A DNA stretch of 64,000 bases, taken from the IMG/VR virus record IMGVR_UViG_3300005253_000051, positions 1 through 64,000 of that record; one strand, written 5' to 3'. The translations under genes were made by a program, and so were the position numbers. Of the stretch, positions 5,920-57,717 are shown piece by piece; position 1 is the stretch's first letter, and every line of letters starts with the position of its first letter. The notes under the pieces were generated by a model. It ran no database searches. It saw nothing but the letters and a program-made list of their open reading frames with translations, and was not told where the DNA came from. The DNA is from a virus.

Positions 5920-6029
5920 CGGTGCCTCCTGTAAATCCGCAGGCATCGGAGCGACGATCGCCGCAACGGTGGCGGTTACAAGCATGCTTAACGCTATCGG
6001 ATTACAGAGGTTTTTGGTAGCGTAGAACC

Positions 6030-6719
6030 ATGGCCTACGAGCAAACGAATGCTTGCGCCGACGGCGGCGATTTTCAGTGTTCAGTCAAGGGAGGCATCTT
6101 TTCGTGCCGCCCGTGCGATTTCCCGCAACTTGAAGTGTTCAAAGGGCTCCAAACACAGACGAATCGGCTTCTTTCTGGCTTTGGAATTCAGCTCCCTGCT
6201 GATCGCCGAGACGGCGCTGCTCAAAGTGTTCTGTGGGTAGACGGGCGCCTCGGTCCCAAGACGGCTACGGCAGTTTCACTCGTAGCGATCAAGGCCGAAG
6301 AAAAAGGCTATCGACCAATCCCGCCGGCTGTTCCTCTGATGCGACTACCGGGCTTTATTGAGGCGCTGAAAAATGCGGCCACCGCGCCATCTGGTGTTGC
6401 GAAGTACGCGCCTGAACTGTTGGTCTACTTCAAAAGCGTGGCCGACAAAATCCAAGCTACTACTCCTCCTAGTGGGATTCCTACCCCCGAAGAGCGTGGC
6501 CAGAAGCCCGAAGAGGATGAAATTCGAGCCCGTCCGCCGCGCAAGAAGAAATCCACCTGGATGTGGTGGGCTCTCGGAGGCGCTGTACTCGTCGGAGCGG
6601 GCGTCTTCGGTTACTACTACTGGTACAAGCCAAACAGAGCACGTGCTCTGTCTGGGCACGGTGATGGCGACCAAGATGACGATCCGTCATCCTACTTACC
6701 TGGGGTGCGAGATTACTAG
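6030..6719 (+). CDS. Peptidoglycan-binding-like membrane protein
   Basis: 229 residues. The N-terminus has several cysteines (ACADGGDFQC, FSCRPC). Residues about 60-90 include VDGRLGPKTATAV, the pattern of PG_binding_1 domains, which suggests wall binding. A charged linker (EERGQKPEEDE, RPPRKKK) leads to one membrane helix (WWALGGAVLVGAGVFGYYYW) and an acidic tail. It is divergent from the transglycosylase gene and may dock the lytic machinery. The domain call is moderate. Confidence 0.6.
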   Translation: MAYEQTNACADGGDFQCSVKGGIFSCRPCDFPQLEVFKGLQTQTNRLLSGFGIQLPADRRDGAAQSVLWVDGRLGPKTATAVSLVAIKAEEKGYRPIPPAVPLMRLPGFIEALKNAATAPSGVAKYAPELLVYFKSVADKIQATTPPSGIPTPEERGQKPEEDEIRARPPRKKKSTWMWWALGGAVLVGAGVFGYYYWYKPNRARALSGHGDGDQDDDPSSYLPGVRDY

Positions 6720-6727
6720 GAGCCATC

Positions 6728-7081
6728 ATGAGCAAACGAGATCCACGACTACCAGCGCATATCGTACCGATTCTCAAGCCGCAGTTGTCGGTGGTGAAAA
6801 AGCCCCGAGATCCAAACGCTTACAGCGCTACCGCGGTGAACATGGCGCGCGAACCATCTTTGCCAAACACATCTGAACCCACCATCGACGGGCTCACCGG
6901 GGTTCGGTGGTGTCAAAAGCACGGGTTCACGTTCCAGTTCGATCTTCCAGCTGTACGAGTCTTCGACGAGACTGGAGAACTTCTCGGTATGGCATACAAT
7001 GCCAACGGCCCCCAGGGGTTGATCGAAGCTATTCAAGCCGTCAAGAAAAACCCTCGAAAATCTGATATAGTATCGGGATAA
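6728..7081 (+). CDS. Hypothetical soluble protein
   Basis: 117 residues. The first half is Pro/Ser-rich and probably extended; the second half forms a small mixed domain (WCQKHGFTFQFDLPAVRVFD; NGPQGLIEAIQAVKKN). No family is recognised. It follows the peptidoglycan-binding-like gene by eight bases and precedes the Cys-repeat protein in the same transcript. Confidence 0.5.
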   Translation: MSKRDPRLPAHIVPILKPQLSVVKKPRDPNAYSATAVNMAREPSLPNTSEPTIDGLTGVRWCQKHGFTFQFDLPAVRVFDETGELLGMAYNANGPQGLIEAIQAVKKNPRKSDIVSG

Positions 7082-7095
7082 GGAGAAAGACAGCC

Positions 7096-7299
7096 ATGGC
7101 ACTTGGAACTACCAAAGGAATGCACTGTATTCGCTTCAAGCGTACTCGCGCCGGCAAACGCTGTGCAAAATATGCAGGGGGTCGAAGAGGCCGAGGCCGA
7201 GGCCGAGGGCGTCGGCATCTTGGAACCACCGAGGGGATGCACTGCGTTCGCTACAAGAAAACCCGTTCTGGCCGTCGCTGTGCGAAATACGCGGACTGA
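7096..7299 (+). CDS. Basic protein with two CxRxKxTRxGRRCAKY repeats
   Basis: 67 residues. Two copies of the motif C-[IV]-R-[FY]-K-x-T-R-[AS]-G-[KR]-R-C-A-K-Y (starting near residues 10 and 49) are joined by an Arg/Gly linker (GGRRGRGRGRGRR). AAGGAGAAAGACAGCC precedes the ATG. The charge suggests binding to DNA or another polyanion, and paired cysteines may bind metal or form disulfides. The same motif recurs in the proteins at 39195 and 41472. I know no named family for it. Confidence 0.65.
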   Translation: MALGTTKGMHCIRFKRTRAGKRCAKYAGGRRGRGRGRGRRHLGTTEGMHCVRYKKTRSGRRCAKYAD

Positions 7300-7302
7300 G
7301 CG

Positions 7303-7407
7303 CTAGTACATCAAGACCGCGATCGCATAACCGATCACGGACAACCCGATGAGGAGGCGACGAGTGCGCGCTCGTCGTCTTTCTCTTCGTTGGGCTTCCC
7401 AGACCAC
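7303..7407 (-). CDS. Tiny basic single-pass membrane peptide
   Basis: 34 residues from a GTG: a basic N-terminus (EAQRRERRRARTRR) followed by one membrane helix (LLIGLSVIGYAIAVLMY). It lies just downstream of the DnaA-IV gene on the same strand. It is too short to be certain. Confidence 0.35.
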   Translation of the reverse strand: MVWEAQRRERRRARTRRLLIGLSVIGYAIAVLMY

Positions 7408-7430
7408 TGGGAATGGATGATGAAGGTGTA

Positions 7431-7766
7431 TCAGTGGATCGCGATGGCGGTGTAGTAAGCCGGGGGCGCTTCGAGAAGCGCTTCGATGAACAGGATCTCC
7501 TGCGAGAATAGCGGATCGGTTTGGATCAGTTTCTGAGCCCGGTGGTGCGCTGCCATGCACGTCGTGTGGTGCTTGTTGAGTACTCGGCCGATGGATGGCC
7601 AGCTCATCGATTTGCGTTCGCGGGCGAGCCAGACGAAGGCGTCGCGGGCGCGTACGATCTCTTTGTATTTCACCCTGCTGCATAAAACAGCCATCGTGAA
7701 CCCGTAGTACTCGGCTACGTTTTTGAGAACGAGTTGCGGTCGAATCGCGATCCAGCTCGTGGTCAT
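7431..7766 (-). CDS. Stand-alone DnaA domain IV-like DNA-binding protein
   Basis: 111 residues from MTTSWIAIRP. Residues about 13-85 match the DnaA C-terminal DNA-binding domain: helix NVAEYYGF, SRVKYKEIVRARD as the basic loop, and WPSIGRVLNKHHTT in the place of the DnaA signature (IGRxxGRDHTT type). The AAA+ ATPase domains of DnaA are absent. The protein could occupy or mark DnaA boxes, steering or blocking host or phage replication initiation. His-His replaces Asp-His in the signature. Confidence 0.75.
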   Translation of the reverse strand: MTTSWIAIRPQLVLKNVAEYYGFTMAVLCSRVKYKEIVRARDAFVWLARERKSMSWPSIGRVLNKHHTTCMAAHHRAQKLIQTDPLFSQEILFIEALLEAPPAYYTAIAIH

Positions 7767-20961: not shown

Positions 20962-21440
20962 CAATGCCTCCTGGCTGAGAGCACGTTCCGGGCGCCTGAG
21001 ATCGCGCGCTCGTCCCACAGCAGTGACGGCATGTACGGCGCACGCCAGTACTTCGCCACTTTTTCAGCGAGCGCGACGCTGAAGGTTGTGTACGGTGGAT
21101 CGTCGAACTCGAAGCGTTCGATATCGATAGGGCGCTCGCAGTCTTCGGTGCACAGATTGAAATTCGGAGCGCCTGCTATCGACAGCGTTTTGTTGTAGGT
21201 CGAGTGGCCCTGCGGCAGCACTTTGTCGTCAAGGGCGTAGTCGATCGACGGCAGCATGAAATCGAACACGTGCCAGGAACACACGGGCCCGTAGCCAATG
21301 GCACGATATCGGTACATTTCATGAGCGCTGAGGGGAGGGGGGTGATCGGACAGCGCCAACGCGAAACTCGACGTGCGCACGTCGTTGACGGTCACGTAGT
21401 TGAGGTTGGTGAAGAGGATGTACGTTATTTTGCTCATCAC
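20961..21440 (-). CDS. Hypothetical protein
   Basis: 159 residues. Beta-rich N-terminus (KITYILFTNLNYVTVNDV), middle with PVCSWHVFDFMLPSIDY, and a C-terminus predicted helical. Two Cys near residue 105 (LCTEDCE). No family is recognised. Overlaps family member 11 by ATGA. Confidence 0.5.
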   Translation of the reverse strand: MMSKITYILFTNLNYVTVNDVRTSSFALALSDHPPPLSAHEMYRYRAIGYGPVCSWHVFDFMLPSIDYALDDKVLPQGHSTYNKTLSIAGAPNFNLCTEDCERPIDIERFEFDDPPYTTFSVALAEKVAKYWRAPYMPSLLWDERAISGARNVLSARRH

Positions 21441-21991
21441 CTGTGGACGCTACGCCTTCGGGAATATTCAAGCAGCTGCCGGGCTAGATCCTCATCGCCG
21501 GCCACGACGGCTGCGCCCGCGGCAGCGCGTAGTTCTTCGTCTAAATCTCGACCACGGCTGAGATCTCGGATGACCCAGCGTGCAAAGGCGATCTGAATCT
21601 CACTGGAATCGACACCAGCGTGAGAAGCGTCGGCGGCGGCGTAGGTGACATAGGCGGCAGCGGAGTCGTCGGTATAGGGGGAGTTGGTAGCGTGAGCGGC
21701 GGCCCAAGCGGTAGCACTGGCGACGCGAGCAGCGTCGGCGGCGGCATAGGCGGCAGTGGCGGCATAGGCGGCGCGGGTGGCGCGGGCGGCAGCGCGAGGG
21801 GCGCCGCGAGCGGCGGCGCTAGCAGCGGCACTATCTATTTGCTTCTTGTTCGCATAGCGCTCCGCAATCTTGATTGCAGCTATGACAGCAGATTGTTGAT
21901 CGCCGTTATAAAACGGCAGCGCCAGACGCGCGCATTCAACTGCGAATCCAACTGCATTGCGGAGATTACTCCATTTCCGATCGTATTTCAC
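21437..21991 (-). CDS. Ala-rich family member 11, longest core of its group
   Basis: 184 residues from a GTG at 21991 that overlaps the upstream stop; VKYDRKW then matches the family start. Core: RAAYAATAAYAAADAARVAS plus ATNSPYTDD. The C-block is extended beyond LARQLLE by a basic tail (YSRRRSVHR) absent in other copies. Confidence 0.7.
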   Translation of the reverse strand: MKYDRKWSNLRNAVGFAVECARLALPFYNGDQQSAVIAAIKIAERYANKKQIDSAAASAAARGAPRAAARATRAAYAATAAYAAADAARVASATAWAAAHATNSPYTDDSAAAYVTYAAADASHAGVDSSEIQIAFARWVIRDLSRGRDLDEELRAAAGAAVVAGDEDLARQLLEYSRRRSVHR

Positions 21992-22200
21992 GCACTCCGC
22001 CCCCACGCCAATTCGTTGCACCGAATTTCATCTTTACAACGAGGACAGAAAACAACTTTCCACATGATATCCGGGGTCTCTCGGTCGTACACCGTGCGTA
22101 TATCAGAAGGCTCGTATTCTGCAAGCACGAGACAGTTGCGGCACCGCGCACGCGCTACGACATTCACCTTATTCGGATCTTCTATGATTTTAGCCATCAC
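21988..22200 (-). CDS. Small zinc-ribbon protein
   Basis: 70 residues. Two CxxC pairs (RCRNCLVL and FCPRCKDE) frame a beta segment (DIMWKVVFC), a treble-clef or ribbon zinc site. Coupled to the unknown gene upstream. Nucleic-acid binding is plausible. Confidence 0.55.
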   Translation of the reverse strand: MMAKIIEDPNKVNVVARARCRNCLVLAEYEPSDIRTVYDRETPDIMWKVVFCPRCKDEIRCNELAWGRSA

Positions 22201-24647: not shown

Positions 24648-25148
24648 TCAAGCATTCACGATATCGTGAGCAGTTTTCGACAGCTCCAACACCGTCGTAC
24701 CCACCAGCTCGGCCGCTAGCTCGGTGGCGCCGCCGTACGCCGCGGCCAGCGCCGCACTTCTCAGCTCGGCATCGAGCCCCTTGTCGTGCGCCGCAAGACG
24801 CACGGCCCAGCGTACCGCGGCTTGGAATCGCTTCTCCTGTTGCTCACGGTACCGGCCGTAGACGTAGCCTTGCGCGAATTGCGCGGACTCTAAGTATTCT
24901 TGGGCCACGCGGGGATCGTCGCAGAAGATCGCGGACAAGATACGAGCCATGGCGAGATTGCTTCCCAGTCTCCCTGCGCGCTCGTCGATCGCGTCTCGAA
25001 TTTCGTCCAGATCAGCTTTTGCGAACTCGGCGCCCGCGGCGTAGTCGAGCACCGCGTTGATGCCGCGTTCAAGTACGAGATCAACGTGTGCGTCGTCGCG
25101 TACCAGCTCAGCAATGAGCCCCAGTTTCATTCTGAACAGGTCTTCCAT
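24648..25148 (-). CDS. Highly diverged relative of the Ala-rich family (member 12)
   Basis: 166 residues; AAGGAG precedes the ATG. The N-block is not recognisable, but the C-terminal half follows the family C-block pattern (AAVRWAVRLAAHDKGLDAEL; AALAAAYGGATELAAELV). It probably represents an old branch. The core is charged (ARILSAIFCDDPRVAQEYL) rather than Ala-rich. Confidence 0.5.
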   Translation of the reverse strand: MEDLFRMKLGLIAELVRDDAHVDLVLERGINAVLDYAAGAEFAKADLDEIRDAIDERAGRLGSNLAMARILSAIFCDDPRVAQEYLESAQFAQGYVYGRYREQQEKRFQAAVRWAVRLAAHDKGLDAELRSAALAAAYGGATELAAELVGTTVLELSKTAHDIVNA

Positions 25149-25603: not shown

Positions 25604-25822
25604 TCACCCCGTATTCACGATTTTCTGTTTCAGCGTCGAGAACCCAATCCCGAGCTTCTTGGCTGCGCGGTCGCGGTTTCCGTCGCTCTTGGCGAGCACA
25701 AAGTTGGTGTAGAATTTCTCGAACGCATGGCGGGCTCGACGCAGATGCCACGGTCGCTTTATCGAGATCAGGGTATTGATCAGCGTGTCCACTTGGGTTT
25801 TGAGCTGTTTTTCTGGTGTCAT
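25604..25822 (-). CDS. Fis-type helix-turn-helix protein
   Basis: 72 residues. The C-terminal segment FVLAKSDGNRDRAAKKLGIG with STLKQKI is the Fis/NtrC-type HTH_8 pattern (helix, GN-R-AA-LGI, recognition helix). The N-terminus (LKTQVDTLINTLISIKRPW) probably dimerises. It follows the CRISPR array on the same strand by 50 bases and could regulate the locus or organise DNA. Confidence 0.7.
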   Translation of the reverse strand: MTPEKQLKTQVDTLINTLISIKRPWHLRRARHAFEKFYTNFVLAKSDGNRDRAAKKLGIGFSTLKQKIVNTG

Positions 25823-25872: not shown

Positions 25873-27340
25873 GTCGCATCTTGAAAGGCGATGCGCTGCC
25901 ATTGCTAGTTCGTCGAGAACTGCGACGAGCCCGTCGCATCTTGAAAGGCGATGCGCTGCCATTGCTACGTCGCGTGCCACGCGCCAGGAGACGAGTTGGT
26001 GTGCCGTCGCATCTTGAAAGGCGATGCGCTGCCATTGCTACCTTCCTCTCGGCCGCGGGGTCGCATCTTGAAAGGCGATGCGCTGCCATTGCTACAGCAC
26101 GACCAACGTCGTTGGTTACGGCACCGACGTGTCGCATCTTGAAAGGCGATGCACTGCCATTGCTACCGCGAGCCATCGGTAAACAGTCGCTCGGCTCACT
26201 CCGTCGCATCTTGAAAGGCGATGCGCTGCCATTGCTACGTGGCCGACGCGGCGAAGATCCTGGGCGTATCCACGTCGCATCTTGAAAGGCGATGCGCTGC
26301 CATTGCTACCTCCTCGATGTAGTCGCATTCGACGACCGAGCACGAAAGGTCGCATCTTGAAAGGCGATGCGCTGCCATTGCTACTAGACGGACCGTCTTC
26401 GAGTACCCGTGATCCAGTCCGTCGCACCTTGAAAGGCGATGCGCTGCCATTGCTACCCGCGCTGGGATCAATTCCGTGAGGAGATCAGACTCGACGTCGC
26501 ATCTTGAAAGGCGATGCGCTGCCATTGCTACAAACCAGCGGCGGCGTTCGCGTTCGCTCCCTCCCCCAGTCGCATCTTGTAAGGCGATGCGCTGCCATTG
26601 CTACGCACCAACAGCGCGACGACTGCGCAGAATGACTGGGAGTCGCATCTTGTAAGGCGATGCGCTGCCATTGCTACAGCATATCCATGGAGGAGCACCC
26701 CGAGCTATCAGCCAAGGTCGCATCTTAAAAGGCGATGCGCTGCCATTGCTACGGATGCGGTGCGTACGGCGATTGCGTGAGACAAAGTGAGTCGCATCTT
26801 AAAAGGCGATGCGCTGCCATTGCTACCGAGCTGGGCGACGGCGAACAGAAAACAATTCTGGTCGTCGCATCTTAAAAGGCGATGCGCTGCCATTGCTACA
26901 TGCGGCGCACGCCGGTGAGAACAATGCTTCCGCGACGTCGCATCTTAAAAGGCGATGCGCTGCCATTGCTACAGGCAACCTGGCCCCTAGTGGAGTGGAC
27001 AATTCGACTGGTCGCATCTTAAAAGGCGATGCGCTGCCATTGCTACACGATGACATTTTTGCGTGCCCATTCATCTGGTGCGACGTCGCATCTTAAAAGG
27101 CGATGCGCTGCCATTGCTACGGATCGGTGCTCTAGCAATCAGCCCACGCTCTTTCGCGTCGCATCTTAAAAGGCGATGCGCTGCCATTGCTACCGTGAAG
27201 CCTACTGGCGACAGAGCTATCCGGGCACCGTGTCGCATCTTAAAAGGCGATGCGCTGCCATTGCTACAGCCCTACGTAAACGTGTCGATCTGCGTTGATC
27301 TCGCGTCGCATCTTGAAAGGCGATGCGCTGCCATTGCTAC
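25873..27340 (-). CRISPR. CRISPR array, 21 repeats of 36 bp and 20 spacers
   Basis: Repeats start at 25873, 25933, 26006, 26060, 26131, 26203, 26274, 26349, 26421, 26496, 26569, 26642, 26717, 26791, 26864, 26937, 27011, 27085, 27158, 27232 and 27305. Read on the minus strand, as the effector is, each begins GTAGCAATGGCAGC and ends AAGATGCGAC, with a 6-bp stem (CGCATC/GATGCG, 9-base loop) at the 3' end as in type V crRNA handles. Spacers are 35-39 bases except the third and first from the far end (18 and 24). Loop variants: TTTCAA in the far block (25873-26531) and the effector-proximal repeat, TTACAA in two repeats (26569, 26642), TTTTAA in eight (26717-27232). The last repeat (25873) has a changed first base, as in leader-distal ends. 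No leader separates the array from the effector gene. Confidence 0.97.
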
Positions 27341-28872
27341 GGCGCCTCTGGATCTTTGTGTTTTTTCGCAAACCTAGGCGTGCTTTTTCGAGTGGTTGGG
27401 TTACGGACGTTTCCGATCGCATACATATTCATCATGTTTTGCGTGCTTACGCGGTCACGATCTTCTACGACACCACAGCCCCCACACGTCACCACGCGCT
27501 CGGGCCCGTAGCTGTTGACGAAGCTGCAAGCCGGGCAATGGTTGGTCGTATCGACCGCACAGACGACGGAAACACCCGTGATGCGGCCAAACACGCGCGT
27601 GATCTCTTCAATCACCTCGCCGGGCGCGGCATGATGACCCTGGCGTCGAGCCGGCTTCGGAAGGCTCGTTTTGTTTTCCTTCATCTTCTTGTGGCAGGAA
27701 TCCTTGATGACCGCATGCGCGTAGCGTCGGCGTAGATCACGCAGCCAGACGCGCACGTCGTTGCGCCGCCGGGTGACCGACCGGTTACGACACCCTGCTT
27801 CGTACTGCCACAAGTGCCGCTCCTTCTTGATCCACTTGGTGTGCTCTCCTGGTTTTGCGACACGTCGAACGCTCAGTGTCGATTTCAGTCGTGCGAAAAG
27901 TTTTTTGTTCGAGAATCCGCAAACGGCCAAAATGACGCTCCAAAAACGCTCTTGTTTTTGTAACTCCACAAGGTTCTGATCACGCGCTGATCGTATCCGA
28001 TCAGCTTGATCAGCATGCTTCATCCATTTAGGAGGGAGCACCAACTCGTACTCGGCACCGTCGTCACCACGCGCGTAAGCGATGCGCATGCCGTCGTCGG
28101 TCTTACGCCAACCGACATCGATAGCGACAGCGCCTCGCTCGGCGTTGTCTTTGCGCTCGGGGATATCGCGGCGCGTGAACTGCACAGACCAGATGACACG
28201 ATCTGCGACGTACTTGCGGGCGATCTTGACCCACGTGGCCGTACCTTGAAGGGGACGATGCATCTCGAAAGGTAGTGGCTCGGCCCACACAGGCGCTTGG
28301 CCTTTGGATCCCACACGAAGACGGAGCGTGTAGCGCTGTTGCTTTTTCTTACGAGGATCCGGCGCCGACTTGATCAAGAACATCCGGTCTGGATCCTTGT
28401 CGCGCTGGATTTGGACCGCACACATATCACCCTGGCGCCAGCTGCGGAATTTCACCAGCGAGAAAGATTCAGTCTCTTTCCAAGCCGCCGAAAAGTCTTG
28501 TTCGATCACAAGATAGGTGCCCCAGTATAGGCCACCTTCGGCCGCTTTCTTGCGGAACGGCTTCACGTCAAGAGGAGGCTCAGAACGGTACTGCTTGCGC
28601 AGTGCCTTGTAATGAGCGCGGCAAACCGGACAGAATTTCTTGCACTCGTGCTTTCGTGGTTTGCGTTTCTTGCTTTCCGCTTTATCACAGGTCGAACAAG
28701 ATTTTTTGCACACGTGTGTTGCCGGTGAAGGGGGACGATCCCCGCCCCACATAGTCGTGCGCCTCTCGTTCTCCGCTTCGACGAGACTGTTGTAGTAGAC
28801 ACGGCCCAGGTTCATTTGGGCACACAAGGTGTCCCCACCGGGGAGTGCTCCGTACTTGTAGACTTTGGTCAT
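27337..28872 (-). CDS. Compact type V (Cas12/TnpB-like) CRISPR effector
   Basis: 511 residues, in the size range of compact Cas12 proteins. RuvC-I: AVAIDVGWRK (Asp252). The RuvC-II position (YAHAVIKDS) has Lys390 where TnpB/Cas12 have the catalytic Glu. Zinc ribbon: CPAC (446, 449) and CGGC (463, 466). RuvC-III: EDRDRVSTQNM (Asp471/473). An extra Cys cluster lies at residues 55-84 (C55, C59, C62, C77, C81, C84). The N-terminus (MNLGRVYYNSLVEAENERR) and DVGWR look closest to the V-U1/Cas12m branch, by eye. Its TAG stop lies inside the first repeat, so effector and crRNA are probably co-transcribed. No cas1, cas2 or cas4 adjoins it. DNA binding without cleavage is inferred. Confidence 0.88.
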   Translation of the reverse strand: MTKVYKYGALPGGDTLCAQMNLGRVYYNSLVEAENERRTTMWGGDRPPSPATHVCKKSCSTCDKAESKKRKPRKHECKKFCPVCRAHYKALRKQYRSEPPLDVKPFRKKAAEGGLYWGTYLVIEQDFSAAWKETESFSLVKFRSWRQGDMCAVQIQRDKDPDRMFLIKSAPDPRKKKQQRYTLRLRVGSKGQAPVWAEPLPFEMHRPLQGTATWVKIARKYVADRVIWSVQFTRRDIPERKDNAERGAVAIDVGWRKTDDGMRIAYARGDDGAEYELVLPPKWMKHADQADRIRSARDQNLVELQKQERFWSVILAVCGFSNKKLFARLKSTLSVRRVAKPGEHTKWIKKERHLWQYEAGCRNRSVTRRRNDVRVWLRDLRRRYAHAVIKDSCHKKMKENKTSLPKPARRQGHHAAPGEVIEEITRVFGRITGVSVVCAVDTTNHCPACSFVNSYGPERVVTCGGCGVVEDRDRVSTQNMMNMYAIGNVRNPTTRKSTPRFAKKHKDPEAP

Positions 28873-30606: not shown

Positions 30607-31125
30607 CTAAGCTGCGTTTTCTACCAGGTAAGCGGCCATCTTGTAATCCCCCACGGCCGCGGCGGCGAGCGCCGCCTTGCGCACCATGTTCCCGAGGCGC
30701 CGGTCCAGGGTGCGCTCCATGTCCTTGACCACCCAGCGGCCGACGATGACGTCGCGCTCGGAGTTGTCGAGACCAATGTTCTCCCAATACGCGTGTACCT
30801 TGTCGAAATTCACATAGCGCTGGAGGTTATAGGGAATCACAATGCGTGCTGAATGCACCGCCATCGTAGGAACAACATTCGCAGCGGAACGAAATGCGTG
30901 GCGCATACGCGGATGAACATGTTCAATGTCATCTAAATTATTGATCGCTAGGCTCATTTCCAGCGGATCGATCCACTGCTTGGACTCCCACAACTCTACG
31001 AATCGGATCACGCTCACGATCTTGCTCTTGTGCTTTCCTCGATACTGCGGCAATGCTGCGCGAACGAGCGCCGCCGCGCAGCCCGCCATCGACCGCGGAC
31101 ACTTCCAGTCGTAGTTAATAGTCAT
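30607..31125 (-). CDS. Diverged member 13 of the Ala-rich family
   Basis: 172 residues from MTINYDWKCPRSMAG (a coupled GTG at 31191 is possible). N-block relatives: ALVRAALPQYRGKHKSK and RFVELWESKQWI. The core is ordinary helix without Ala repeats. C-block: DVIVGRWVVKDMERTLDRR, AALAAAAVGDYKMAAYLVE. It supports the idea that the scaffold exists without the repeat core. Confidence 0.6.
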   Translation of the reverse strand: MTINYDWKCPRSMAGCAAALVRAALPQYRGKHKSKIVSVIRFVELWESKQWIDPLEMSLAINNLDDIEHVHPRMRHAFRSAANVVPTMAVHSARIVIPYNLQRYVNFDKVHAYWENIGLDNSERDVIVGRWVVKDMERTLDRRLGNMVRKAALAAAAVGDYKMAAYLVENAA

Positions 31126-31187
31126 CTTCTTCTTCAGGGCAAAGTTGATCCCCCACCCGTACACCATCATTTTCCATTTGACCTGGC

Positions 31188-31373
31188 TCACAATCGCCTC
31201 AGCTTGAGCAAGCCGGCGCCCGACTTGGTGATGAATCCGTGGCCGGGGTTGTGCAAGACGATCTCTCCGTCGCTGTCGATCCGGTACACGATCCAGTCGC
31301 CGTGATGCTCAGACCGGTACTTGTCCCCGAGGCGTGGGCGTCGGGTGAGCACTTGTGCTAGCCAACTATCCAC
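31188..31373 (-). CDS. Small beta-rich protein
   Basis: 61 residues from a GTG overlapping the upstream TAG. LGDKYRSEHHGDWIVYRIDS and GFITKSGAGLLKL suggest a small beta barrel, of the type seen in phage hypothetical proteins. No family recognised. Confidence 0.5.
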   Translation of the reverse strand: MDSWLAQVLTRRPRLGDKYRSEHHGDWIVYRIDSDGEIVLHNPGHGFITKSGAGLLKLRRL

Positions 31374-33657: not shown

Positions 33658-33857
33658 CGCTTCCACGTCTTAATTGGACCACTGCCTGTCATGCCTAGTC
33701 GTACCTCCCACAACATGGGTAACTCGATCTTCTCGAACCATCCGGGGACCGCTTTCTCGGCGGCTTCCTGCGTCCCGTACGCGGCTATAAAGTAGTTCCC
33801 TGTGCCGAAAATGCCGCCAACGCCGCGTCCGTACAGTTTGAATCGCTTTCGAGCCAT
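33654..33857 (-). CDS. Small hypothetical protein
   Basis: 67 residues from MARKRFKLYGRGVGG. IAAYGTQEAAEKAVPGWFEK is a helix typical of short phage proteins that process numeric-like repeats, but no family is clear. Coupled to the VWA-like gene upstream. Confidence 0.5.
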   Translation of the reverse strand: MARKRFKLYGRGVGGIFGTGNYFIAAYGTQEAAEKAVPGWFEKIELPMLWEVRLGMTGSGPIKTWKR

Positions 33858-35128
33858 CAACAGCTCCCAATCTCGATGACCCGGGCGCCCTCCGGCACGC
33901 TAGCCCCGTCATAGCCCACGAGCGCCACGACTTTTTGACGAGCACTCGATGGCCACGGAGGCCACACCAAGCCGCCGTCGGTGAGGTGAATCATCACGTC
34001 GAAGCGACCCGCGGCGGCGACCTTCCGGTAAGCGTCTTCGGCGCACGTGCCGCCGCGCCCTCTGAGCGTCTTTTTGATCTCAGCGGGATGGCACTTCGGT
34101 GAAAGCCAGCCCTCCCACTGAACGCCATGATCGTGGGTCACGAGGTAGACCGAGACCCCCGAAGCCTGCGAGATCTTCATCGTCTCAGCGACGAACTGGG
34201 ACAACTCTTCATCCGAAACCGAGCCCGAAGTGTCGATCACGACTGCGGCGCGCGCCGCTGTCGCGTGCCAGCCCGGAAACTGCGCCCCGCGTGCTCGTGA
34301 GCGACGCCCGCGGCGCGTCCAGGTCTGCGAGTCCCGACCGTGGACCGCGAGCGCAGAAGCCATCCCACGACGCACCACAGCGGCCCAGTTGACGCGAGCT
34401 GGCGGAATGTCGCATATGGTCGCCAGCGCCGCACCCGCGGCGTCGCCGGCTTTGCGCGCCATGGCCTGGGCCTGCGCCGCGATCTTGGACCACTCTTGAT
34501 CGAGTTGCGTTTCGCTTTTGGGCTCTTCGCCGTCCTCAGAACCCTCGGGGGGCATGACACCACAGCCGGCGCCGGGGGTAAGGCCGTCGCCGCTCATGGA
34601 TACCGAAGGCTTGTCCTGTAAATTCTGAACGATCTGATCGTATATCCGCTCAGCGTGCCAAGTTTCCCACCCGGACTCAGGAAAAATTGCGCCTTTGGAA
34701 TAACTCTTGAGCCCCGAGGTCACCAGTGCGTGGTTGATCGCCATGTCCCCGGCGATGTTCCAGACCGAGATCGGCTTTGCGTCAGGATTTGGTTTTCCAT
34801 CTGGAAGAGTAGGAGGATACGGTTTCCCATCGGGACCGACGGGGATAACCATCACGGTCCGATTGCCTTGCCGCGCCGCGTGGCGCATTAAAAGATGCAT
34901 CAGCTCGTGCGCAATCACCCACTTGAACTGGGCATCGCTGAGTTTTTTGCAAAATGGCGTGTGCAAATAGATGATCCCGTCGGCGGTGACGCCCATGGTA
35001 TTGACCTTGAAACCCACCGCGTCCTCACGAAATCGGACCTTAGCTGCGGGAATCGCGAAAAACGGGGAGTACCAACCCAGGGCGATCGATAGGCGCTTGG
35101 CTTTTTCGACGATTTTGCTCATGGTCAT
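33857..35128 (-). CDS. VWA-like protein with metallopeptidase-like domain (DUF2201)
   Basis: 423 residues. The N-terminal domain has HELMHLL (HExxH, His74-His78), the putative metallopeptidase part of DUF2201 proteins. A charged linker (residues 185-225) leads to a C-terminal VWA-like fold with the MIDAS motif VIDTSGSVSDEE. Such proteins pair with MoxR-type AAA+ ATPases, and one is encoded 2.1 kb upstream. Together they may remodel or mature a protein complex. Substrate unknown. Confidence 0.8.
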   Translation of the reverse strand: MTMSKIVEKAKRLSIALGWYSPFFAIPAAKVRFREDAVGFKVNTMGVTADGIIYLHTPFCKKLSDAQFKWVIAHELMHLLMRHAARQGNRTVMVIPVGPDGKPYPPTLPDGKPNPDAKPISVWNIAGDMAINHALVTSGLKSYSKGAIFPESGWETWHAERIYDQIVQNLQDKPSVSMSGDGLTPGAGCGVMPPEGSEDGEEPKSETQLDQEWSKIAAQAQAMARKAGDAAGAALATICDIPPARVNWAAVVRRGMASALAVHGRDSQTWTRRGRRSRARGAQFPGWHATAARAAVVIDTSGSVSDEELSQFVAETMKISQASGVSVYLVTHDHGVQWEGWLSPKCHPAEIKKTLRGRGGTCAEDAYRKVAAAGRFDVMIHLTDGGLVWPPWPSSARQKVVALVGYDGASVPEGARVIEIGSC

Positions 35129-35179: not shown

Positions 35180-35398
35180 ATGGCGCAGAAGAAAATTGTA
35201 GTAGATGGTATGCGGCTATGGTTCAACAAGGACACCTGCACAGTAAACCCTGTCAAACCTACTCAGGGTAAATGGGCGTTGCTATTCAAAAAAGCGGCGG
35301 CGCGCGGTGGAAAATTTGAGTTGAAATTTGCTGGACTAGAAACAATGGGACACGCAGATGTTGTACTTCGATCTACCGAGTGCAAACGACTTCGATGA
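35180..35398 (+). CDS. Small basic plus-strand protein
   Basis: 72 residues, one of the few plus-strand genes outside the left end. Basic and beta-rich (KKIVVDGMRLWFNKDTC; GGKFELKFAGLETMG). It is divergent from the VWA-like gene and overlaps the end of family member 14. Ribosome site is weak. Confidence 0.45.
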   Translation: MAQKKIVVDGMRLWFNKDTCTVNPVKPTQGKWALLFKKAAARGGKFELKFAGLETMGHADVVLRSTECKRLR

Positions 35399-35921
35399 GC
35401 TGGCGAGCCAGATCTTCATCGCCGGCCACGATTGCCGCGCCTGCGGCCTGGCGCAGCTCTTCGTCTAGATCTCGGCCACAACTGAGATCTCGAACTACCC
35501 AGCGAGCAAAAGCGATCTGAATCTCGCTGGAATCGACACCGGCGTCATCGGCGCCGCGGGCGGCATCGGCGGCGTCGGCAGAAGCATCAGCGGCAGCATC
35601 AGAATCGTAGTTGACGACGTTGGCGGCACCGTAAGCAGCGTAGGCGGCGACGGAAGCAACGGCGGCAGCGGCGATAGTGGCCCAGGCGGAATGAGGGGTC
35701 GGGTAGGGGCCGGCAGGGGCAGCAGAAACAGCGGCTCCAGCTACACGATGAGCATCGGTATCATCTATTTGCTCACCGTTCGCATAACATTCTGCAATCT
35801 CGATCGCAGCTACGAGATTAGATCGTTGATCGCCGTCGTAAAACGGCAGCGCTAGACGCGCACACGCGGCGGCGAACCCAACCGCATTGCACCGGTTGTT
35901 CCAATCTCGTTCGTAGTTCAT
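35373..35921 (-). CDS. Ala-rich family member 14, long core
   Basis: 182 residues. Conserved ends (MNYERDWNNRCN; FARWVVRDLSCGRD; LARQLIEVV). The core is the most varied: a Pro-containing stretch (AAPAGPYPTPHSAW), then AAAAVASVAAYAAYGAA and an Asp-rich repeat (DSDAAADASADAADAARG). Confidence 0.75.
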   Translation of the reverse strand: MNYERDWNNRCNAVGFAAACARLALPFYDGDQRSNLVAAIEIAECYANGEQIDDTDAHRVAGAAVSAAPAGPYPTPHSAWATIAAAAVASVAAYAAYGAANVVNYDSDAAADASADAADAARGADDAGVDSSEIQIAFARWVVRDLSCGRDLDEELRQAAGAAIVAGDEDLARQLIEVVCTR

Positions 35922-36121: not shown

Positions 36122-36684
36122 GTTATTCCTTTGACGAGCTGGCGAGCTAGATCTTCATCACCAGCCACGATTGCTGCGCCCGCGGCTTGACGCAGCTCTT
36201 CGTCAAGATCTTGATCATCGCCGCTGAGATCTCGGACGACCCAGCGCGCGCAGGCCACTTGAATCTCGCTGTTGCAGACGCCAGCACGACCAGCGTGATT
36301 GGCAGCAGCGGCGGCGTAGTGGACGATGCGAGCGGCAGGGGCATAGCGAGCGATGCGAGCGGCAGCGACGTCGGCGGAGACGGCGTAGTAAGCGGGGGTA
36401 GCGTAGACGGCGATGGCGGCGTCTGCGGCGGCGGCGGCACAAGCGGCAACAGCAACGTCGGCGTCGGTGTCGGCATCGTAAACAACATCCTGTGCAGCGT
36501 TGGCGGCTTTGAGCGAGGCGGCGGCAACGCTAAGGGCACCGTTCACACAGCATTCTGCAATCTCGATCGCAACTACGAGATCTGATCGTCGATCACCGCT
36601 GTAAAACGGCAGCGCCAACCGCGCGCATTCCGCAGCAAATCCAACCGCGTTGTGGGGGTTGCCCCATTCCCGTTCGTAGTTCAT
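36118..36684 (-). CDS. Ala-rich family member 15, longest copy
   Basis: 188 residues. N-block ECARLALPFYSGDRRSD; the core is Ala/Asp/Val rich (VAVAACAAAAADAAIAVYAT; AARIARYAPAARIVHYAAAA) with Tyr/His spacing. C-block variant VCNSEIQVACARWVVRDLSG and the tail LARQLVKG. Confidence 0.75.
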   Translation of the reverse strand: MNYEREWGNPHNAVGFAAECARLALPFYSGDRRSDLVVAIEIAECCVNGALSVAAASLKAANAAQDVVYDADTDADVAVAACAAAAADAAIAVYATPAYYAVSADVAAARIARYAPAARIVHYAAAAANHAGRAGVCNSEIQVACARWVVRDLSGDDQDLDEELRQAAGAAIVAGDEDLARQLVKGIT

Positions 36685-36939: not shown

Positions 36940-37262
36940 TGGTGTTTTCCTTCAAAAATCAGCTCATTTATCTTGGATTCAGCTTCCTCTCGCGAAAGAA
37001 ATATCTCTAGGCGGCCGATGGAGATGCCGTACTCGTTCAGTCGAACGACTTGATATTCAGTTCCACCAAACAACCTATGAGTGACGACCATGAAAATAAC
37101 CTGTCGGCCTAACGAGTCGGCGCGCCTCGCTCGGACTCTGAATTCTTGATCAGACTCATCAAACCACCATCGCCTTCGCTTTCGTCGCAGACCGAAGAGG
37201 ACTAACACAAGGTTGTCAAGCCCAGGACCATAGAATAGATCAATCGCGTCGGTCTCCTTCAC
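36936..37262 (-). CDS. Hypothetical protein
   Basis: 108 residues. Beta-rich (VLVLFGLRRKRRRWWFDESD; GRQVIFMVVTHRLFGG) with an acidic helical end (LSREEAESKINELIF). No family recognised. Overlaps the MoxR stop by ATGA. Confidence 0.5.
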   Translation of the reverse strand: MKETDAIDLFYGPGLDNLVLVLFGLRRKRRRWWFDESDQEFRVRARRADSLGRQVIFMVVTHRLFGGTEYQVVRLNEYGISIGRLEIFLSREEAESKINELIFEGKHQ

Positions 37263-38347
37263 AGACCCATCGCGTTCCCGGCCTTGCCGAGCAAAGTCAC
37301 CATGGCTTTTTTGCCCTTCGCCTGAAAGCGCTTTTTCCCGTGCTGCCGGCGGGACATGAGCGCTTTGGCCGCCGATGCGCCGATTTCATCCCGCAGGCGG
37401 CTCGCGTAGATCCACGCCGCCCAGCAATCCGCATCTGCGACGTTGGCCAAAAGCCCGAGCGCGCCTACCTGGTACATCGCGTTGTCCGGCACCTTGGCGC
37501 CGTCGGGGTTGACCACGATCTCGCTGATCGTGGGTAGGTGGATTCGGTACTCGCGGATCCCCATGTAGCTCGCGGCCCCATGCTCACCCACCGAACCCGA
37601 CAGAATCAGGTGAGCGATTTCATCGCCCACGTTCTCACCTGCTTGCGCCCACGCGCACAGCCCGCGTTCCCAGTCGCGCGGCGATGCCCACTTGGCGCCT
37701 TCGTTGACCGCAGCCGGTGGCGGGTCAAACTGGACCATTTCGGGCGCATGCTCAGCCGTCGCGGCGAAATCCTGTGCCAGCGCCCGTAGCGGGCTGTCAT
37801 CGGCGCCCAGCTTGTACAAATAACTTTGGAACTCAGACAGTGTAGGTTCGAAGGTGTAGACGGAGAACCGGCCCATGAGCGGCGCACAGGGCTCGGTGCC
37901 ACCCGGAGACTGCTCCACGGGGTTGGCGAACGCGATCACACGGGACTCAGGGTGAAGCGTCACATCGCCGAACGTGCGTTCCAGGATGCCGCGGAGTAAA
38001 ACCGCCTGAACCGCCGGGGGCGCGGTGAACAGCTCGTCGAGAATCAGCAAGCATGGTTTTTCGGCCGCTTCGCGGATCACGCGCATCGGAATGCGGTCGA
38101 ACGCACCGCCATCGCCCACGACCGGGAATCCGCCGATGTCCGTCGGATCACACGTGGACCCGATGACCGTGACGGCTTCGAGCTGAAAGCCGAGCGCCGC
38201 GGAAAGCTCAGGGACCAGATCATGGCCGAGTGTGGTTTTGCCCACGCCGGGCGAACCGATCAACAGGACGGCTTTGTTCGCGATGAGGTACGGCATAATG
38301 ACGGGGAGCGCGGTCGAAAAAGTGAGTTTGGGATACGTGGTGGCCAT
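37259..38347 (-). CDS. MoxR-type AAA+ ATPase
   Basis: 362 residues from MATTYPKLTF. Walker A: GSPGVGKTT; Walker B: CLLILDEL; the ERTFGDVTL segment and the following sensor region fit MoxR ATPases. These work as chaperone-like rings with VWA-domain partners, here the product of 33857-35128. The C-terminus is basic (SRRQHGKKRFQAKGKK). Likely role: assembly, activation or dismantling of a target complex. A transcription terminator lies just upstream, so it starts its own transcript. Confidence 0.85.
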   Translation of the reverse strand: MATTYPKLTFSTALPVIMPYLIANKAVLLIGSPGVGKTTLGHDLVPELSAALGFQLEAVTVIGSTCDPTDIGGFPVVGDGGAFDRIPMRVIREAAEKPCLLILDELFTAPPAVQAVLLRGILERTFGDVTLHPESRVIAFANPVEQSPGGTEPCAPLMGRFSVYTFEPTLSEFQSYLYKLGADDSPLRALAQDFAATAEHAPEMVQFDPPPAAVNEGAKWASPRDWERGLCAWAQAGENVGDEIAHLILSGSVGEHGAASYMGIREYRIHLPTISEIVVNPDGAKVPDNAMYQVGALGLLANVADADCWAAWIYASRLRDEIGASAAKALMSRRQHGKKRFQAKGKKAMVTLLGKAGNAMGL

Positions 38348-38421
38348 GGTCTTTGTCCTGGTTTGGGATGCGCTGTGAGATAACTCAGACGGAACCCACC
38401 TGATCAAATTCATGAAAAACA

Positions 38422-38454
38422 GAAAAAGCCCGAAACCACTAAGGGTTCCGGGCT
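38422..38454 (-). terminator. Rho-independent terminator
   Basis: On the minus strand AGCCCGGAACC, six bases, GGTTTCGGGCT followed by a T run. It closes the transcript of the virion-like gene at 38475 and separates it from the MoxR gene. Confidence 0.8.
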
Positions 38455-38474
38455 GATCCAGGCTAGAAATCGAA

Positions 38475-39185
38475 CTACACGAACTCCGCAGAAATCTCCG
38501 TGTCGGTATTGCCTCCACCGATGGCGCCCGCTTTCACTCCGATAAAGTCGATGAGATCCCCCATAGAAACAGGCACAGTGGAAACTAGATTACTTGCGCT
38601 TCCGATAGCTCCAGTAAGCAAAGTCACCGAAGCAGCATCGATCCCGTTCACACGGAGACGGTAGTCAATGGGGCTGCCGTTCCCACCGGCCGCATTGTGT
38701 CTAGCAAAAAACTTCTGGAACACGCCAGGACGAGGCGCATTGAACGTGAAATCACGTGATGAAGACGCATTTCCTTGTCCTCGACCGGGCGTGAGAAAAA
38801 CTGTTCCGGGACCCGCTGTCAGGAAATCGTTTCCCCATAAGGCAAGAGCGCTGGTACCCCCACCAGGCCCCGCGCCTCCAGCTTGGTTGAGGATGAATGG
38901 CCGAACGGAAAGCCCGTCTGGCTGAAAAGCCCCGTTAGCGCCGAACGCCCGTAAAATGGTGTGCAGATGAGCAACCCATACATCGACATTTGGACCTGGA
39001 GATGTCGCAGTGCGGACTACCGTAACGGTTGTTCCGTTCGCTGTAACGACAAACGGCCCGAGTGCCGGGGCGACGAAATCGGGGATGAGGGGGAACCCGT
39101 CCTGATTCAGATCATGGTCGAGTATTTGGGGGACGCCGACTACCAAACCGGTAAACATCAGCGTCCGATAAAGTCGATTCGCCAT
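38475..39185 (-). CDS. Virion-like beta-rich protein, paralog A
   Basis: 236 residues. N-terminal block FTGLVVGVPQILDHDLN then PDFVAPALGPFVVTANGT and VDVWVAHLHTIL is shared with the three proteins at 42336-44611, here more diverged. The C-terminal half is a beta-rich domain (DYRLRVNGIDAASVTLL; VSMGDLIDFIGVKAG) of the C1q/jelly-roll-like type used for virion spikes. Virion role is inferred. Confidence 0.6.
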   Translation of the reverse strand: MANRLYRTLMFTGLVVGVPQILDHDLNQDGFPLIPDFVAPALGPFVVTANGTTVTVVRTATSPGPNVDVWVAHLHTILRAFGANGAFQPDGLSVRPFILNQAGGAGPGGGTSALALWGNDFLTAGPGTVFLTPGRGQGNASSSRDFTFNAPRPGVFQKFFARHNAAGGNGSPIDYRLRVNGIDAASVTLLTGAIGSASNLVSTVPVSMGDLIDFIGVKAGAIGGGNTDTEISAEFV

Positions 39186-42335: not shown

Positions 42336-43088
42336 CTAGAAGAGACTGTGAATGGCAAATTCTGGGTTAAGACCTTGGGGAATCACGGTGCTAGAAGCAT
42401 TGTTGGTGAATGCAAACACCTCCAGAAAATCTCCAGCAGTTAGATCGAAATCGCTAGCAAACTCTGTGGTGACGTCAAACCCAACGGTTCCTGTCAAAGT
42501 TTCCGTGGCTTCTACAAGGATTCCGTTGATGGCAATCGTAAGCCTCTGCGTGTGATTGGCAATGGGAGCAACTGTCCCGTACTTGGCGGTAACAGCATAC
42601 CGACCGGGGCTAGCGATCACGAAACGACTGAGTGGAAGATTTACGATTCCACCGAAATCGTATTCGAGCGTATTGAACAAGAGCTTCGTATCAGGAAAAC
42701 CCGCAGGGATTGCTTGCGTGACCGTATTCCGCATCTTCCCTGCAGCAGTTGCCTCTCCTGCCGACGAAACCCCTTGATTGAGGATGAATGGCTGCGGGAC
42801 CAAGGAGCCATCTGGTTGAGCGCCAGGTTGAGGCTGAGTCGATCCGAACTCACGGCGAATCGTGTGCCACGAGCTAGCCCAAACATCGACCGCATCAGGA
42901 GACTCGTCGGCTAGACGCGTGACCGTGATGTCGATGTCGTCTGCCGTAACTTGGAAGCCACCTTCGTTCGGCGCCACAATATCAGGGACGAGGTTTCGCG
43001 GAGGGTTGACCAGTCCATGAGGAAGAGAAACCGGAACACCAACAACTAGGCCGGTGAACTGGACGATGCTTTCGATTTTGATTCCCAT
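42336..43088 (-). CDS. Virion-like paralog B
   Basis: 250 residues. N-block: VQFTGLVVGVPVSLPHGL, LVPDIVAPNEGGFQV, VDVWASSWHTIRREFGS. The C-terminal domain (ALTIAINGILVEATETLTG; FDLTAGDFLEVFAFTNNAS) is a TNF/C1q-like beta fold. The HGL...P pattern near the start is typical of phage fibre and surface proteins. It is the first of three tandem copies. Confidence 0.65.
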   Translation of the reverse strand: MGIKIESIVQFTGLVVGVPVSLPHGLVNPPRNLVPDIVAPNEGGFQVTADDIDITVTRLADESPDAVDVWASSWHTIRREFGSTQPQPGAQPDGSLVPQPFILNQGVSSAGEATAAGKMRNTVTQAIPAGFPDTKLLFNTLEYDFGGIVNLPLSRFVIASPGRYAVTAKYGTVAPIANHTQRLTIAINGILVEATETLTGTVGFDVTTEFASDFDLTAGDFLEVFAFTNNASSTVIPQGLNPEFAIHSLF

Positions 43089-43099
43089 AGTCCTGAACC

Positions 43100-43849
43100 C
43101 TAGAAGTTGCTGTGGATGGCGAACACAGGCTCGCGGCCGTTTGCAATCAGTGTACTAGCGCCGGCAGACAAGAATGCAAATACCTCCAGGAAATCTCCAG
43201 CGACTAGATTGAAGTCGCTAGCGAATACTGGAGTGATTCCGAACGCGATTGATGCTGTCAATTCTTCTACAGTCTCCACAAAAATCCCGTTGATGGCAAT
43301 CGTAAGTTGCTGCGTGAAAGCAGCACCGGGGGCAGTCGTCGCATACTTGGATGTAACGGTATACCGACCAGGTTCAGTGATCACGAAACGATCAAGTCCG
43401 ATGTTTACGATTCCACCGAAATCGTAATCGATCGAGTCAAACGCGACCTTTGTGTTTACCCCTGCGGGGATTGCTTGAATAACAAGCGCTCGTATCTTTG
43501 CGGTAACAGCTGCCTCCCCTGATTCCGAAACCCCTTGGTTGATGATGAACGGCTGTGGAACCAGCGAACCATCCGGCTGAATACCGGGCTGAGGCTGAGT
43601 CGATCCGAACTCGCGGCGGATCGTGTGCCACGAGCTAGCCCAAACATCGACCGAATCAGGAGACTCGTCGGCTAGGCGCGTAACCGTAATGTTGGTGTCA
43701 TCGGCAGTGACCAGGAAGCCGCCTTCGTTTGGCGCCACAACATCAGGGACGAGCTTTCGCGGAGGGTTGACCAGCCCGTGGGGAAGAGAGACCGGATCAT
43801 CAACAATGAGATCGATGAACTGGACGATTGCTTCGATTTTGATTCCCAT
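43100..43849 (-). CDS. Virion-like paralog C
   Basis: 249 residues. About 75-80% like copies B and D by eye in the first 120 residues; differences cluster in the middle (EAAVTAKIRALVIQAIPAG) and near the end (LSAGASTLIANGREPVF). The N-block has FIDLIVDDPVSL instead of FTGLVVGVPVSL. Divergence is mostly conservative, suggesting functional copies. Confidence 0.65.
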   Translation of the reverse strand: MGIKIEAIVQFIDLIVDDPVSLPHGLVNPPRKLVPDVVAPNEGGFLVTADDTNITVTRLADESPDSVDVWASSWHTIRREFGSTQPQPGIQPDGSLVPQPFIINQGVSESGEAAVTAKIRALVIQAIPAGVNTKVAFDSIDYDFGGIVNIGLDRFVITEPGRYTVTSKYATTAPGAAFTQQLTIAINGIFVETVEELTASIAFGITPVFASDFNLVAGDFLEVFAFLSAGASTLIANGREPVFAIHSNF

Positions 43850-43864
43850 AGTCCGAACCCAACC

Positions 43865-44611
43865 CTAGAAGTTGCTATGAACAGCGAACATAGATTCACG
43901 AAGACCCGTGAGTGTGGAGGCGCCAGTGTTGAGTAGAGCAAACACCTCCAAGAAATCTCCAACGGCTAAATCGAAGTCGCTAGCGAATACTACGGTAACT
44001 CCCCGGCCAGCGATTGATGTAAGAGTTTGAGTAGCCTTTACGAGAATCCCGTTGATGGCAATCGAAAGCCTTTGCACGTGGTTGGCACCAACAGATTGTG
44101 TGCCGTACCTAGCTTCGACGCTGTATCGACCAGCGGTAACGATCACGAATCGATCGAGCCCGATGTTTACGATTCCACCGAAATCGTAATCGGTCACATC
44201 GAATGTGAGTTTCGTGTCTGCCGCCGCTGGAAGCACTTGAGCGACAGAAGCTGTAATCTTCCCGGAGACGGCCGCCTCTGCCGCTTGTGAAACCCCTTGG
44301 TTGATCACGAATGGCTGCGGAACCAGTGAACCATCTGGCTGGATACCGGGCTGGGGTTGAGTCGATCCGAACTCGCGCCGCATTGTGTGCCACGAGCTGG
44401 CCCAGACATCGACCGCATCAGGAGAATCGTCGGCAAGACGCGTGACTGTGATGTCGATGTCGTCTGCGGTAACTTGGAAACCGCCTTCGTTCGGCACCAA
44501 AAGGTCGGGGACAAGATTTCGCGGAGGGTTGACCAACCCGTGGGGAAGAGCGACCGGCACGCCAACAGCTAGATTGGTGAACTGGACGATGCTTTCGATT
44601 TTAATTCCCAT
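43865..44611 (-). CDS. Virion-like paralog D
   Basis: 248 residues. N-block FTNLAVGVPVALPHGL; middle ASVAQVLPAAADTKLTFDV; end LTGLRESMFAVHSNF. The C-terminal Phe ending is shared with B and C (IHSLF, IHSNF, VHSNF), as expected for a trimeric beta domain with a buried C-terminus. First gene of its run after the non-coding gap. Confidence 0.65.
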   Translation of the reverse strand: MGIKIESIVQFTNLAVGVPVALPHGLVNPPRNLVPDLLVPNEGGFQVTADDIDITVTRLADDSPDAVDVWASSWHTMRREFGSTQPQPGIQPDGSLVPQPFVINQGVSQAAEAAVSGKITASVAQVLPAAADTKLTFDVTDYDFGGIVNIGLDRFVIVTAGRYSVEARYGTQSVGANHVQRLSIAINGILVKATQTLTSIAGRGVTVVFASDFDLAVGDFLEVFALLNTGASTLTGLRESMFAVHSNF

Positions 44612-57367: not shown

Positions 57368-57717
57368 CAGAAAACCGCTCGCACGATCTCGATGGCGACA
57401 TTATTCAGAGACTCCTGCGGAGGTGCCCCCTCATAGGCATCCACAAGAATAGCCTCAATCGCTAAACAGCCGTCATCGATGATCACGGAAGGAAACCGCC
57501 AAACCACATCGGATTCCCCAAACACGGCGAGGAACGAAGCGAAGATGTGAACGGGATCTTTCCAAATGAACTTCACAACATTAGGAGCGGTCCACCACAA
57601 AGCAGCCTTTCGATAGAGTTCGAGATCATCTTCTGCTCGCACACTAAAAATTTTCTCTAGATCAATCACGTACCTGCGCCGGATCTCGTGATCGGTATAA
57701 TCTCGTTTTTCCCCCAT
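57367..57717 (-). CDS. Hypothetical protein sharing a C-terminus with its upstream neighbour
   Basis: 116 residues. VIDLEKIFSVRAEDDLELYR then FGESDVVWRFPSVIIDDG and a C-terminus EIVRAVF, the same seven residues that end the upstream nuclease fusion. The last 60 residues of the two align as diverged copies. Starts within the upstream stop (ATGA). Confidence 0.5.
   Translation of the reverse strand: MGEKRDYTDHEIRRRYVIDLEKIFSVRAEDDLELYRKAALWWTAPNVVKFIWKDPVHIFASFLAVFGESDVVWRFPSVIIDDGCLAIEAILVDAYEGAPPQESLNNVAIEIVRAVF

What the first reader, a model, noticed from the sequence alone, without database searches (positions are those of the whole stretch)
25873..28872. Phage-borne compact type V CRISPR locus with no adaptation genes and no leader
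A 21-repeat array abuts a 511-residue Cas12/TnpB-like effector, and the effector TAG stop codon lies inside the first repeat (bases 2-4 of the repeat on the minus strand). There is no cas1, cas2 or cas4 and no leader. The effector and crRNA are probably one transcript. The fused layout and the small size suggest an unusual or undescribed type V subtype.
Basis: partly seen in the sequence, partly recalled or inferred. Interest (0 to 1): 0.9.

Follow-up and report, generated by a model that had tools for sequence, protein, structure and literature searches.

The report
Virus-borne type V-M CRISPR silencer
A bacterial virus carries its own small CRISPR system of the known V-M kind, whose Cas12m protein probably grips matching DNA and silences it instead of cutting it; the layout is normal for this kind, but this copy has an unusual active site, an extra cysteine-rich element and a gene that ends inside the first CRISPR repeat.

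Summary
The interpretation (a new type V subtype with an odd fused layout) is not supported. The effector is a Cas12m, the effector of type V-M (formerly V-U1), by family profiles, solved-structure sequences, an AlphaFold/Foldseek comparison and a 36-nt repeat whose pseudoknot matches the published Cas12m crRNA and covaries across 14 V-M loci. Sixteen further viral contigs and one named phage carry Cas12m; all but two have an array, 19-185 nt behind the gene, and cas1 is absent from those tested. Real departures: a D-K-D RuvC triad, not listed in the V-M papers I read; a shortened REC2 with twin CX3CX2C motifs found in no relative; and the stop-in-repeat overlap, the extreme of a continuum. 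Best explanation: a naturally nuclease-dead, RNA-guided DNA roadblock expressed from one gene-array transcript and used by a (probably temperate) phage against rival elements. No spacer target was found, so the target is unknown.

The parts
27337..28872 (-). cas12m gene, 511 aa (type V-M effector)
   Evidence: PADLOC Cas12u1 1.2e-50; PDB Cas12m 1.3e-15; Foldseek top 4 all Cas12m
25873..27340 (-). CRISPR array, 21 repeats of 36 nt, 20 spacers; consensus GTAGCAATGGCAGCGCATCGCCTTTCAAGATGCGAC
   Evidence: repeat orientation fixed by the V-M pseudoknot and 3' GAC end
27305..27340 (-). repeat 1 (gene-proximal), overlaps the 3' end of cas12m
27337..27339 (-). TAG stop of cas12m = repeat 1 bases 2-4, 5' of the structured crRNA scaffold (stem A begins at repeat base 9)
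28117..28119 (-). RuvC-I aspartate D252 (motif AIDVGWRK)
27703..27705 (-). K390 at the RuvC-II catalytic glutamate position (E in most relatives, D485 in Cas12m2)
27454..27456 (-). RuvC-III aspartate D473
27475..27537 (-). TNB zinc finger, C446/C449/C463/C466
   Evidence: Pfam PF07282 weak, below cut-off; cysteines invariant in A1
28621..28710 (-). twin CX3CX2C motifs (C55/59/62 and C77/81/84) in a shortened REC2 region, in none of the relatives
25873..26059 (-). distal end of the array with short spacers S18 (18 nt) and S20 (24 nt) and a last repeat changed at base 1; probably the old end

Best explanation
This is a virus-encoded type V-M CRISPR-Cas system. One transcript, read from the minus strand, carries cas12m followed directly by the array. 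Cas12m binds the pseudoknotted 36-nt repeats, and pre-crRNA is cut near the 5' end of each repeat, downstream of the stop codon in the case of repeat 1. Each Cas12m-crRNA complex then binds PAM-flanked double-stranded DNA matching its spacer and stays there as a roadblock to transcription or replication, without cutting, because the RuvC triad is D-K-D. The array is a fixed guide set with no adaptation genes; spacers would come from recombination or from a host adaptation machinery acting in trans. The phage most likely uses it against competing phages or plasmids in the same cell. Shown here: gene, array, overlap, V-M membership, crRNA fold by covariation, triad, absence of cas1/2/4. Inferred: co-transcription, self-processing, silencing without cutting, inter-element competition.
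For: PADLOC Cas12u1 (V-U1 = V-M) E 1.2e-50 over residues 2-482. Profile of eight sequences including the window against PDB sequences: Cas12m 1e-148 to 1e-58, next best a TnpB-like protein at 2e-16 over the C-terminus only. AlphaFold model (mean pLDDT 75): Foldseek hits 1-4 all Cas12m, E 1e-21 to 3e-20, TnpB next at 6e-13. The repeat shares the plan of the MsCas12m repeat on plasmid pMESIL02; stem B pairs in 88 of 90 cells with compensatory changes in 15 repeats from 14 loci, against 59% when partners are swapped; G opposite A at -2, C at -1 and stem A as in the published Cas12m2 crRNA (PMC10442227). No anti-repeat beyond chance nearby, as expected for V-M, which has no tracrRNA (PMC11013384). 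Cas12m with D-E-D, H-D-D and N-D-D triads binds but does not cut dsDNA, and MsCas12m processes pre-crRNA without RuvC (PMC11013384). Gene-array gaps of 19-185 nt and no cas1 in relatives. V-M is reported on plasmids, some prophages and some viral genomes (PMC11656645; PMC13232261).
Against: No spacer has a significant match in phage or plasmid records, own record or V-M-bearing virus records, and three 20-nt spacer starts gave none in IMG/VR, so the role against rivals is untested. I found no assay of a D-K-D Cas12m. No terminase was found in the record, so its phage nature rests on the IMG/VR classification plus replication, integrase and lysis-type genes.
Confidence: 0.82

Rival explanations
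1. A new type V subtype or TnpB-derived effector outside the known subtypes.
For: Only 21-30% identity to its relatives and a long branch without supported sister; Cys-rich REC2 and D-K-D triad not seen together elsewhere.
Against: Full-length profile and fold matches to Cas12m far above any other Cas12 or TnpB; V-M repeat architecture.
Confidence: 0.04
2. A V-M effector that still cuts or nicks DNA through another residue, for example D391 next to K390.
For: Both aspartates D252 and D473 are kept and an acidic residue follows K390.
Against: Even canonical D-E-D Cas12m variants do not cut dsDNA (PMC11013384); a lysine in the metal site should disfavour two-metal catalysis.
Confidence: 0.05
3. 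A regulator of the host's or the phage's own genes (programmable repressor) rather than a weapon against other elements.
For: Nuclease-dead effectors fit repression; spacer S16 reads GVSRATVYRWLA and S15 (reverse strand) VADAAKILGVS, both helix-turn-helix-like, so regulators or recombinases may be targets.
Against: No significant match of any spacer to the phage's own record; 20 unrelated spacers look like a sample of foreign DNA; helix-turn-helix genes are common on mobile elements too.
Confidence: 0.12
4. A decaying, non-functional remnant.
For: Two short spacers and a changed terminal repeat at the distal end; long branch.
Against: Intact 511-codon frame with zinc-finger cysteines and RuvC aspartates kept; repeats nearly identical over 21 copies, only two of them with a single change inside a stem.
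Confidence: 0.05

Closest known systems
Type V-M CRISPR-Cas of Allomeiothermus (Meiothermus) silvanus plasmid pMESIL02, MsCas12m (L003; characterised in PMC11013384)
   Same: Whole-length homology (26% in tblastn), short REC2 segment, array downstream of the gene, GTAGCAAtG... repeats with the same two stems, no tracrRNA
   Different: MsCas12m triad is D-E-D; no REC2 cysteines; first repeat 151 nt after the stop codon; plasmid-borne
Cas12m2 of Mycolicibacterium mucogenicum (PDB 8HHL, 8HHM, 8HIO; PMC10442227)
   Same: Fold, single-crRNA pseudoknot scaffold, inactive RuvC centre
   Different: H-D-D triad; 596 aa with a longer sickle-shaped REC2; its zinc finger is HCCC, the one here has four cysteines
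V-M locus of phage Virus Rctr197k (KX853510, L002) and 16 IMG/VR loci (L015-L030)
   Same: Virus-borne Cas12m; array 19-185 nt behind the gene in most; no cas1 in the records tested
   Different: Longer effectors (558-769 aa, start codons as called here); triads mostly D-E-D or N-x-D; no overlap of stop codon and repeat
Cas12m of Candidatus Manganitrophus plasmids (L004, L033)
   Same: Also lysine at the RuvC-II position (D-K-D)
   Different: Groups with Pelobacter plasmid Cas12m (100/97), not with the window, so the lysine probably arose separately

Membership tests
Type V-M (V-U1) CRISPR-Cas, Cas12m | Effector homologous to Cas12m over its full length and nearer to it than to other Cas12/TnpB | tested here: met
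Type V-M (V-U1) CRISPR-Cas, Cas12m | CRISPR array next to the gene with the V-M repeat architecture (stem A/stem B pseudoknot, G opposite A at -2, C at -1) | tested here: met
   compared with the published crRNA
Type V-M (V-U1) CRISPR-Cas, Cas12m | No tracrRNA | tested here: met
   no anti-repeat beyond shuffled sequence within about 3-4.7 kb on either side; expression not testable
Type V-M (V-U1) CRISPR-Cas, Cas12m | No adaptation module at the locus | tested here: met
Type V-M (V-U1) CRISPR-Cas, Cas12m | PAM-dependent dsDNA binding without cleavage | not testable with these tools
   D-K-D triad is consistent; needs an assay
Type V-M (V-U1) CRISPR-Cas, Cas12m | RuvC triad among the published sets (HEK/HQK, HDD, DED/NED, DND, NDD); varies within the family, so not a criterion of membership | tested here: not met
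   D252-K390-D473; marks a variant within the family
Type V-F / Cas12f or TnpB | Closest full-length similarity to Cas12f or TnpB | tested here: not met
   (C-terminal matches only); the PADLOC model PDLC01692 labelled Cas12f scores nearly as high as Cas12u1 and may itself contain V-U1 members
New type V subtype | Effector outside all known subtypes | tested here: not met

The most novel reading that the evidence does not exclude
The overlap is a regulatory device: because the first crRNA repeat begins inside the stop codon, Cas12m processing its own pre-crRNA clips its own mRNA just behind the stop, coupling effector level to guide production, while the D-K-D centre and a metal-binding REC2 hairpin make a V-M variant that holds the non-target strand by charge instead of through a metal ion.
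Probability: 0.2. Interest if true: 0.6.

Novelty: new variant of a known kind. Interest (0 to 1): 0.38.

Why it matters
Naturally cut-free CRISPR systems on viruses bear on how mobile elements fight each other by silencing rather than by cutting. The set of loci gathered here shows that virus-borne V-M with the array directly behind the gene recurs in many diverse viruses. At 511 aa this is among the smallest intact Cas12m seen here, with an untested active-site type, so it is a natural test of whether lysine in the RuvC centre still allows tight DNA binding. As a discovery it is moderate: kind, layout and mobile-element setting are already described.

Tried and rejected
Single-protein scan of IMG/VR found nothing; the alignment query found 16 loci. 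Repeat-sequence scan of IMG/VR: none. Spacer targets: none; a 25/35 match of S17 to own DNA at 36283-36317 lacks a continuous seed and was treated as chance. Arrays of two relatives against phages: no foreign match. Kin of the phage by its DNA polymerase: none in IMG/VR, only distant in phages, best 28%. The MAFFT alignment of repeats misplaced gaps in the stems, so pairs were counted in registers chosen to maximise pairing, which favours own pairs somewhat; the swapped-partner control keeps those registers.

Full report
Observation. On the minus strand the gene runs 28872-27337 (511 aa, ATG) and the first 36-nt repeat is 27340-27305; the TAG stop is 27339-27337, bases 2-4 of that repeat. There are 21 repeats; 20 spacers of 35-39 nt except S18 (18 nt) and S20 (24 nt). 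Repeat variants lie in blocks (R2-R9 one variant, R10-R11 another, the rest consensus apart from single changes), which suggests growth by copying neighbouring units, and the short spacers and the changed terminal repeat lie at the end far from the gene. The record is an IMG/VR virus record of 81,505 bases. cas1, cas2 and cas4 models find nothing in it, with positive controls.

What the effector is. PADLOC's Cas12u1 model matches residues 2-482 at 1.2e-50; a PADLOC model labelled Cas12f is close behind, but no Cas12f structure comes near. phmmer against PDB sequences gives Cas12m first, and a profile of the window with seven relatives gives five Cas12m chains at 1e-148 to 1e-58, then TnpB-like proteins at 2e-16 over the C-terminus. 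An AlphaFold model from window and virus sequences (mean pLDDT 75, pTM 0.54) has Cas12m as Foldseek hits 1-4, TnpB and Cas12f after that. Type V-M was formerly V-U1 (PMC10442227, PMC11013384).

The repeat. Read on the minus strand the repeat is GTAGCAATGGCAGCGCATCGCCTTTCAAGATGCGAC. Stem B (CGCATC with GATGCG) and stem A (GGC with GCC) interlock as a pseudoknot, with G opposite A at -2 and C at -1, the plan published for the Cas12m2 crRNA. In 15 repeats from 14 loci, 88 of 90 stem-B cells pair, with several pair types per position, against 59% when 3' strands are swapped between loci; stem A pairs in all. Window GGC/GCC against GCC/GGC in most others is itself compensatory, and two repeat forms inside the array of L027 differ by compensatory changes. 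No tracrRNA-like anti-repeat stands out.

Layout in relatives. An alignment query found 16 IMG/VR loci with Cas12m; the named phage Rctr197k (KX853510) has one too, annotated as a transposase next to a CRISPR. L018/L019, L022/L023 and L024/L028 look like near-identical pairs, so the number of distinct loci is smaller. All but L025 and L030 (where the contig end cuts the gene) have an array, first repeat 19-185 nt after the stop. cas1 is absent from all 15 records tested, the window's included. A terminase family rings in five of these records, not in the window's own. So array-behind-gene without adaptation genes is the norm; the window's overlap is its extreme. V-M on plasmids, some prophages and some viral genomes is in the literature, and a landfill virome paper reports virus-encoded effectors clustering with Cas12m/V-U1.

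What is different. (a) RuvC triad D252-K390-D473: lysine sits where relatives have Glu and Cas12m2 has D485. The published clades list HEK/HQK, HDD, DED/NED, DED/DND/NED and the NAR paper DED, HDD, NDD. Lysine also occurs in Manganitrophus plasmid Cas12m, which groups with a Pelobacter N-D-D protein (100/97), so it probably arose twice. (b) The segment between N28 and W117 is 89 residues against 107-122 in most relatives (91 in MsCas12m) and holds two CX3CX2C motifs found in no relative; a bound metal is an inference. (c) The stop codon lies in the first bases of the repeat, before the structured scaffold, so translation and crRNA folding need not conflict; the matching 5' end of the Cas12m2 crRNA is disordered in its structure.

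Mechanism. The Cas12m proteins studied so far, whatever their triad, bind PAM-flanked dsDNA and silence without cutting, use one crRNA and process pre-crRNA without RuvC. With K390 this one should do the same. One transcript is likely since there is no space and no sigma-70-like site between gene and array, but the host is unknown and this is inference. Target choice is unknown: no spacer matched beyond chance. Spacers S15 and S16 can be read as helix-turn-helix peptides, a lead only.

The carrier. DNA polymerase, helicase, PD-(D/E)XK exonuclease, primase-like protein, thymidylate synthase, methyltransferase and a tyrosine integrase plus a metallopeptidase/endolysin-like protein and an SLT transglycosylase fit a temperate phage, but no terminase or capsid gene was recognised, and its nearest polymerase relatives are distant.

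Verdict. Observation confirmed; subtype claim rejected; a new variant within type V-M.

Noticed in passing
window 21437-22021, 30607-31191, 35373-35921 (and weakly 24648-25148), all minus: A family of alanine-rich paralogous proteins (28-58% identity), no Pfam match in any, lying on both sides of the CRISPR locus.
   Followed up: partly
window 33857-35128 and 37259-38518, minus: A DUF2201 metallopeptidase/VWA-like protein and an AAA (AAA_5) ATPase close together; PHROGs labels the first 'HNH endonuclease', which disagrees with Pfam.
   Followed up: partly
window 25604-25822, minus: Small Fis-type helix-turn-helix protein (HTH_8 above cut-off), the first ORF of its strand behind the array.
   Followed up: no
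window 42336-44611, minus: Three adjacent ORFs of about 250 aa with weak, below-cut-off similarity to the BclA C-terminal domain.
   Followed up: no
window 57717-59381, minus: PD-(D/E)XK nuclease with a weak match to a 'CRISPR/Cas system associated' PHROG; more likely a replication exonuclease than Cas4 (Pfam Cas4 finds nothing).
   Followed up: partly
L027, array behind the gene at 5399-7708: Two repeat forms in one array differ by compensatory changes in stem B (CCCGAC/GTCGGG and CGCGAT/ATCGCG), in-array evidence for the crRNA pseudoknot.
   Followed up: yes
L030/L040/L041 (G014, 90,329-base record): Cas12m runs off both ends of the record (29-502 and 89154-90326), so the record looks circular and cut inside cas12m; its terminase and its Cas12m closely resemble those of L027's record (G012).
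   Followed up: partly
L024 and L028: Virus Cas12m whose C-terminus as translated lacks the zinc-finger cysteines and the usual DQD RuvC-III motif.
   Followed up: no
L002 (KX853510, Virus Rctr197k): Cas12m with a CRISPR array deposited as a 'similar to transposase' miscellaneous feature, not recognised as type V-M.
   Followed up: yes
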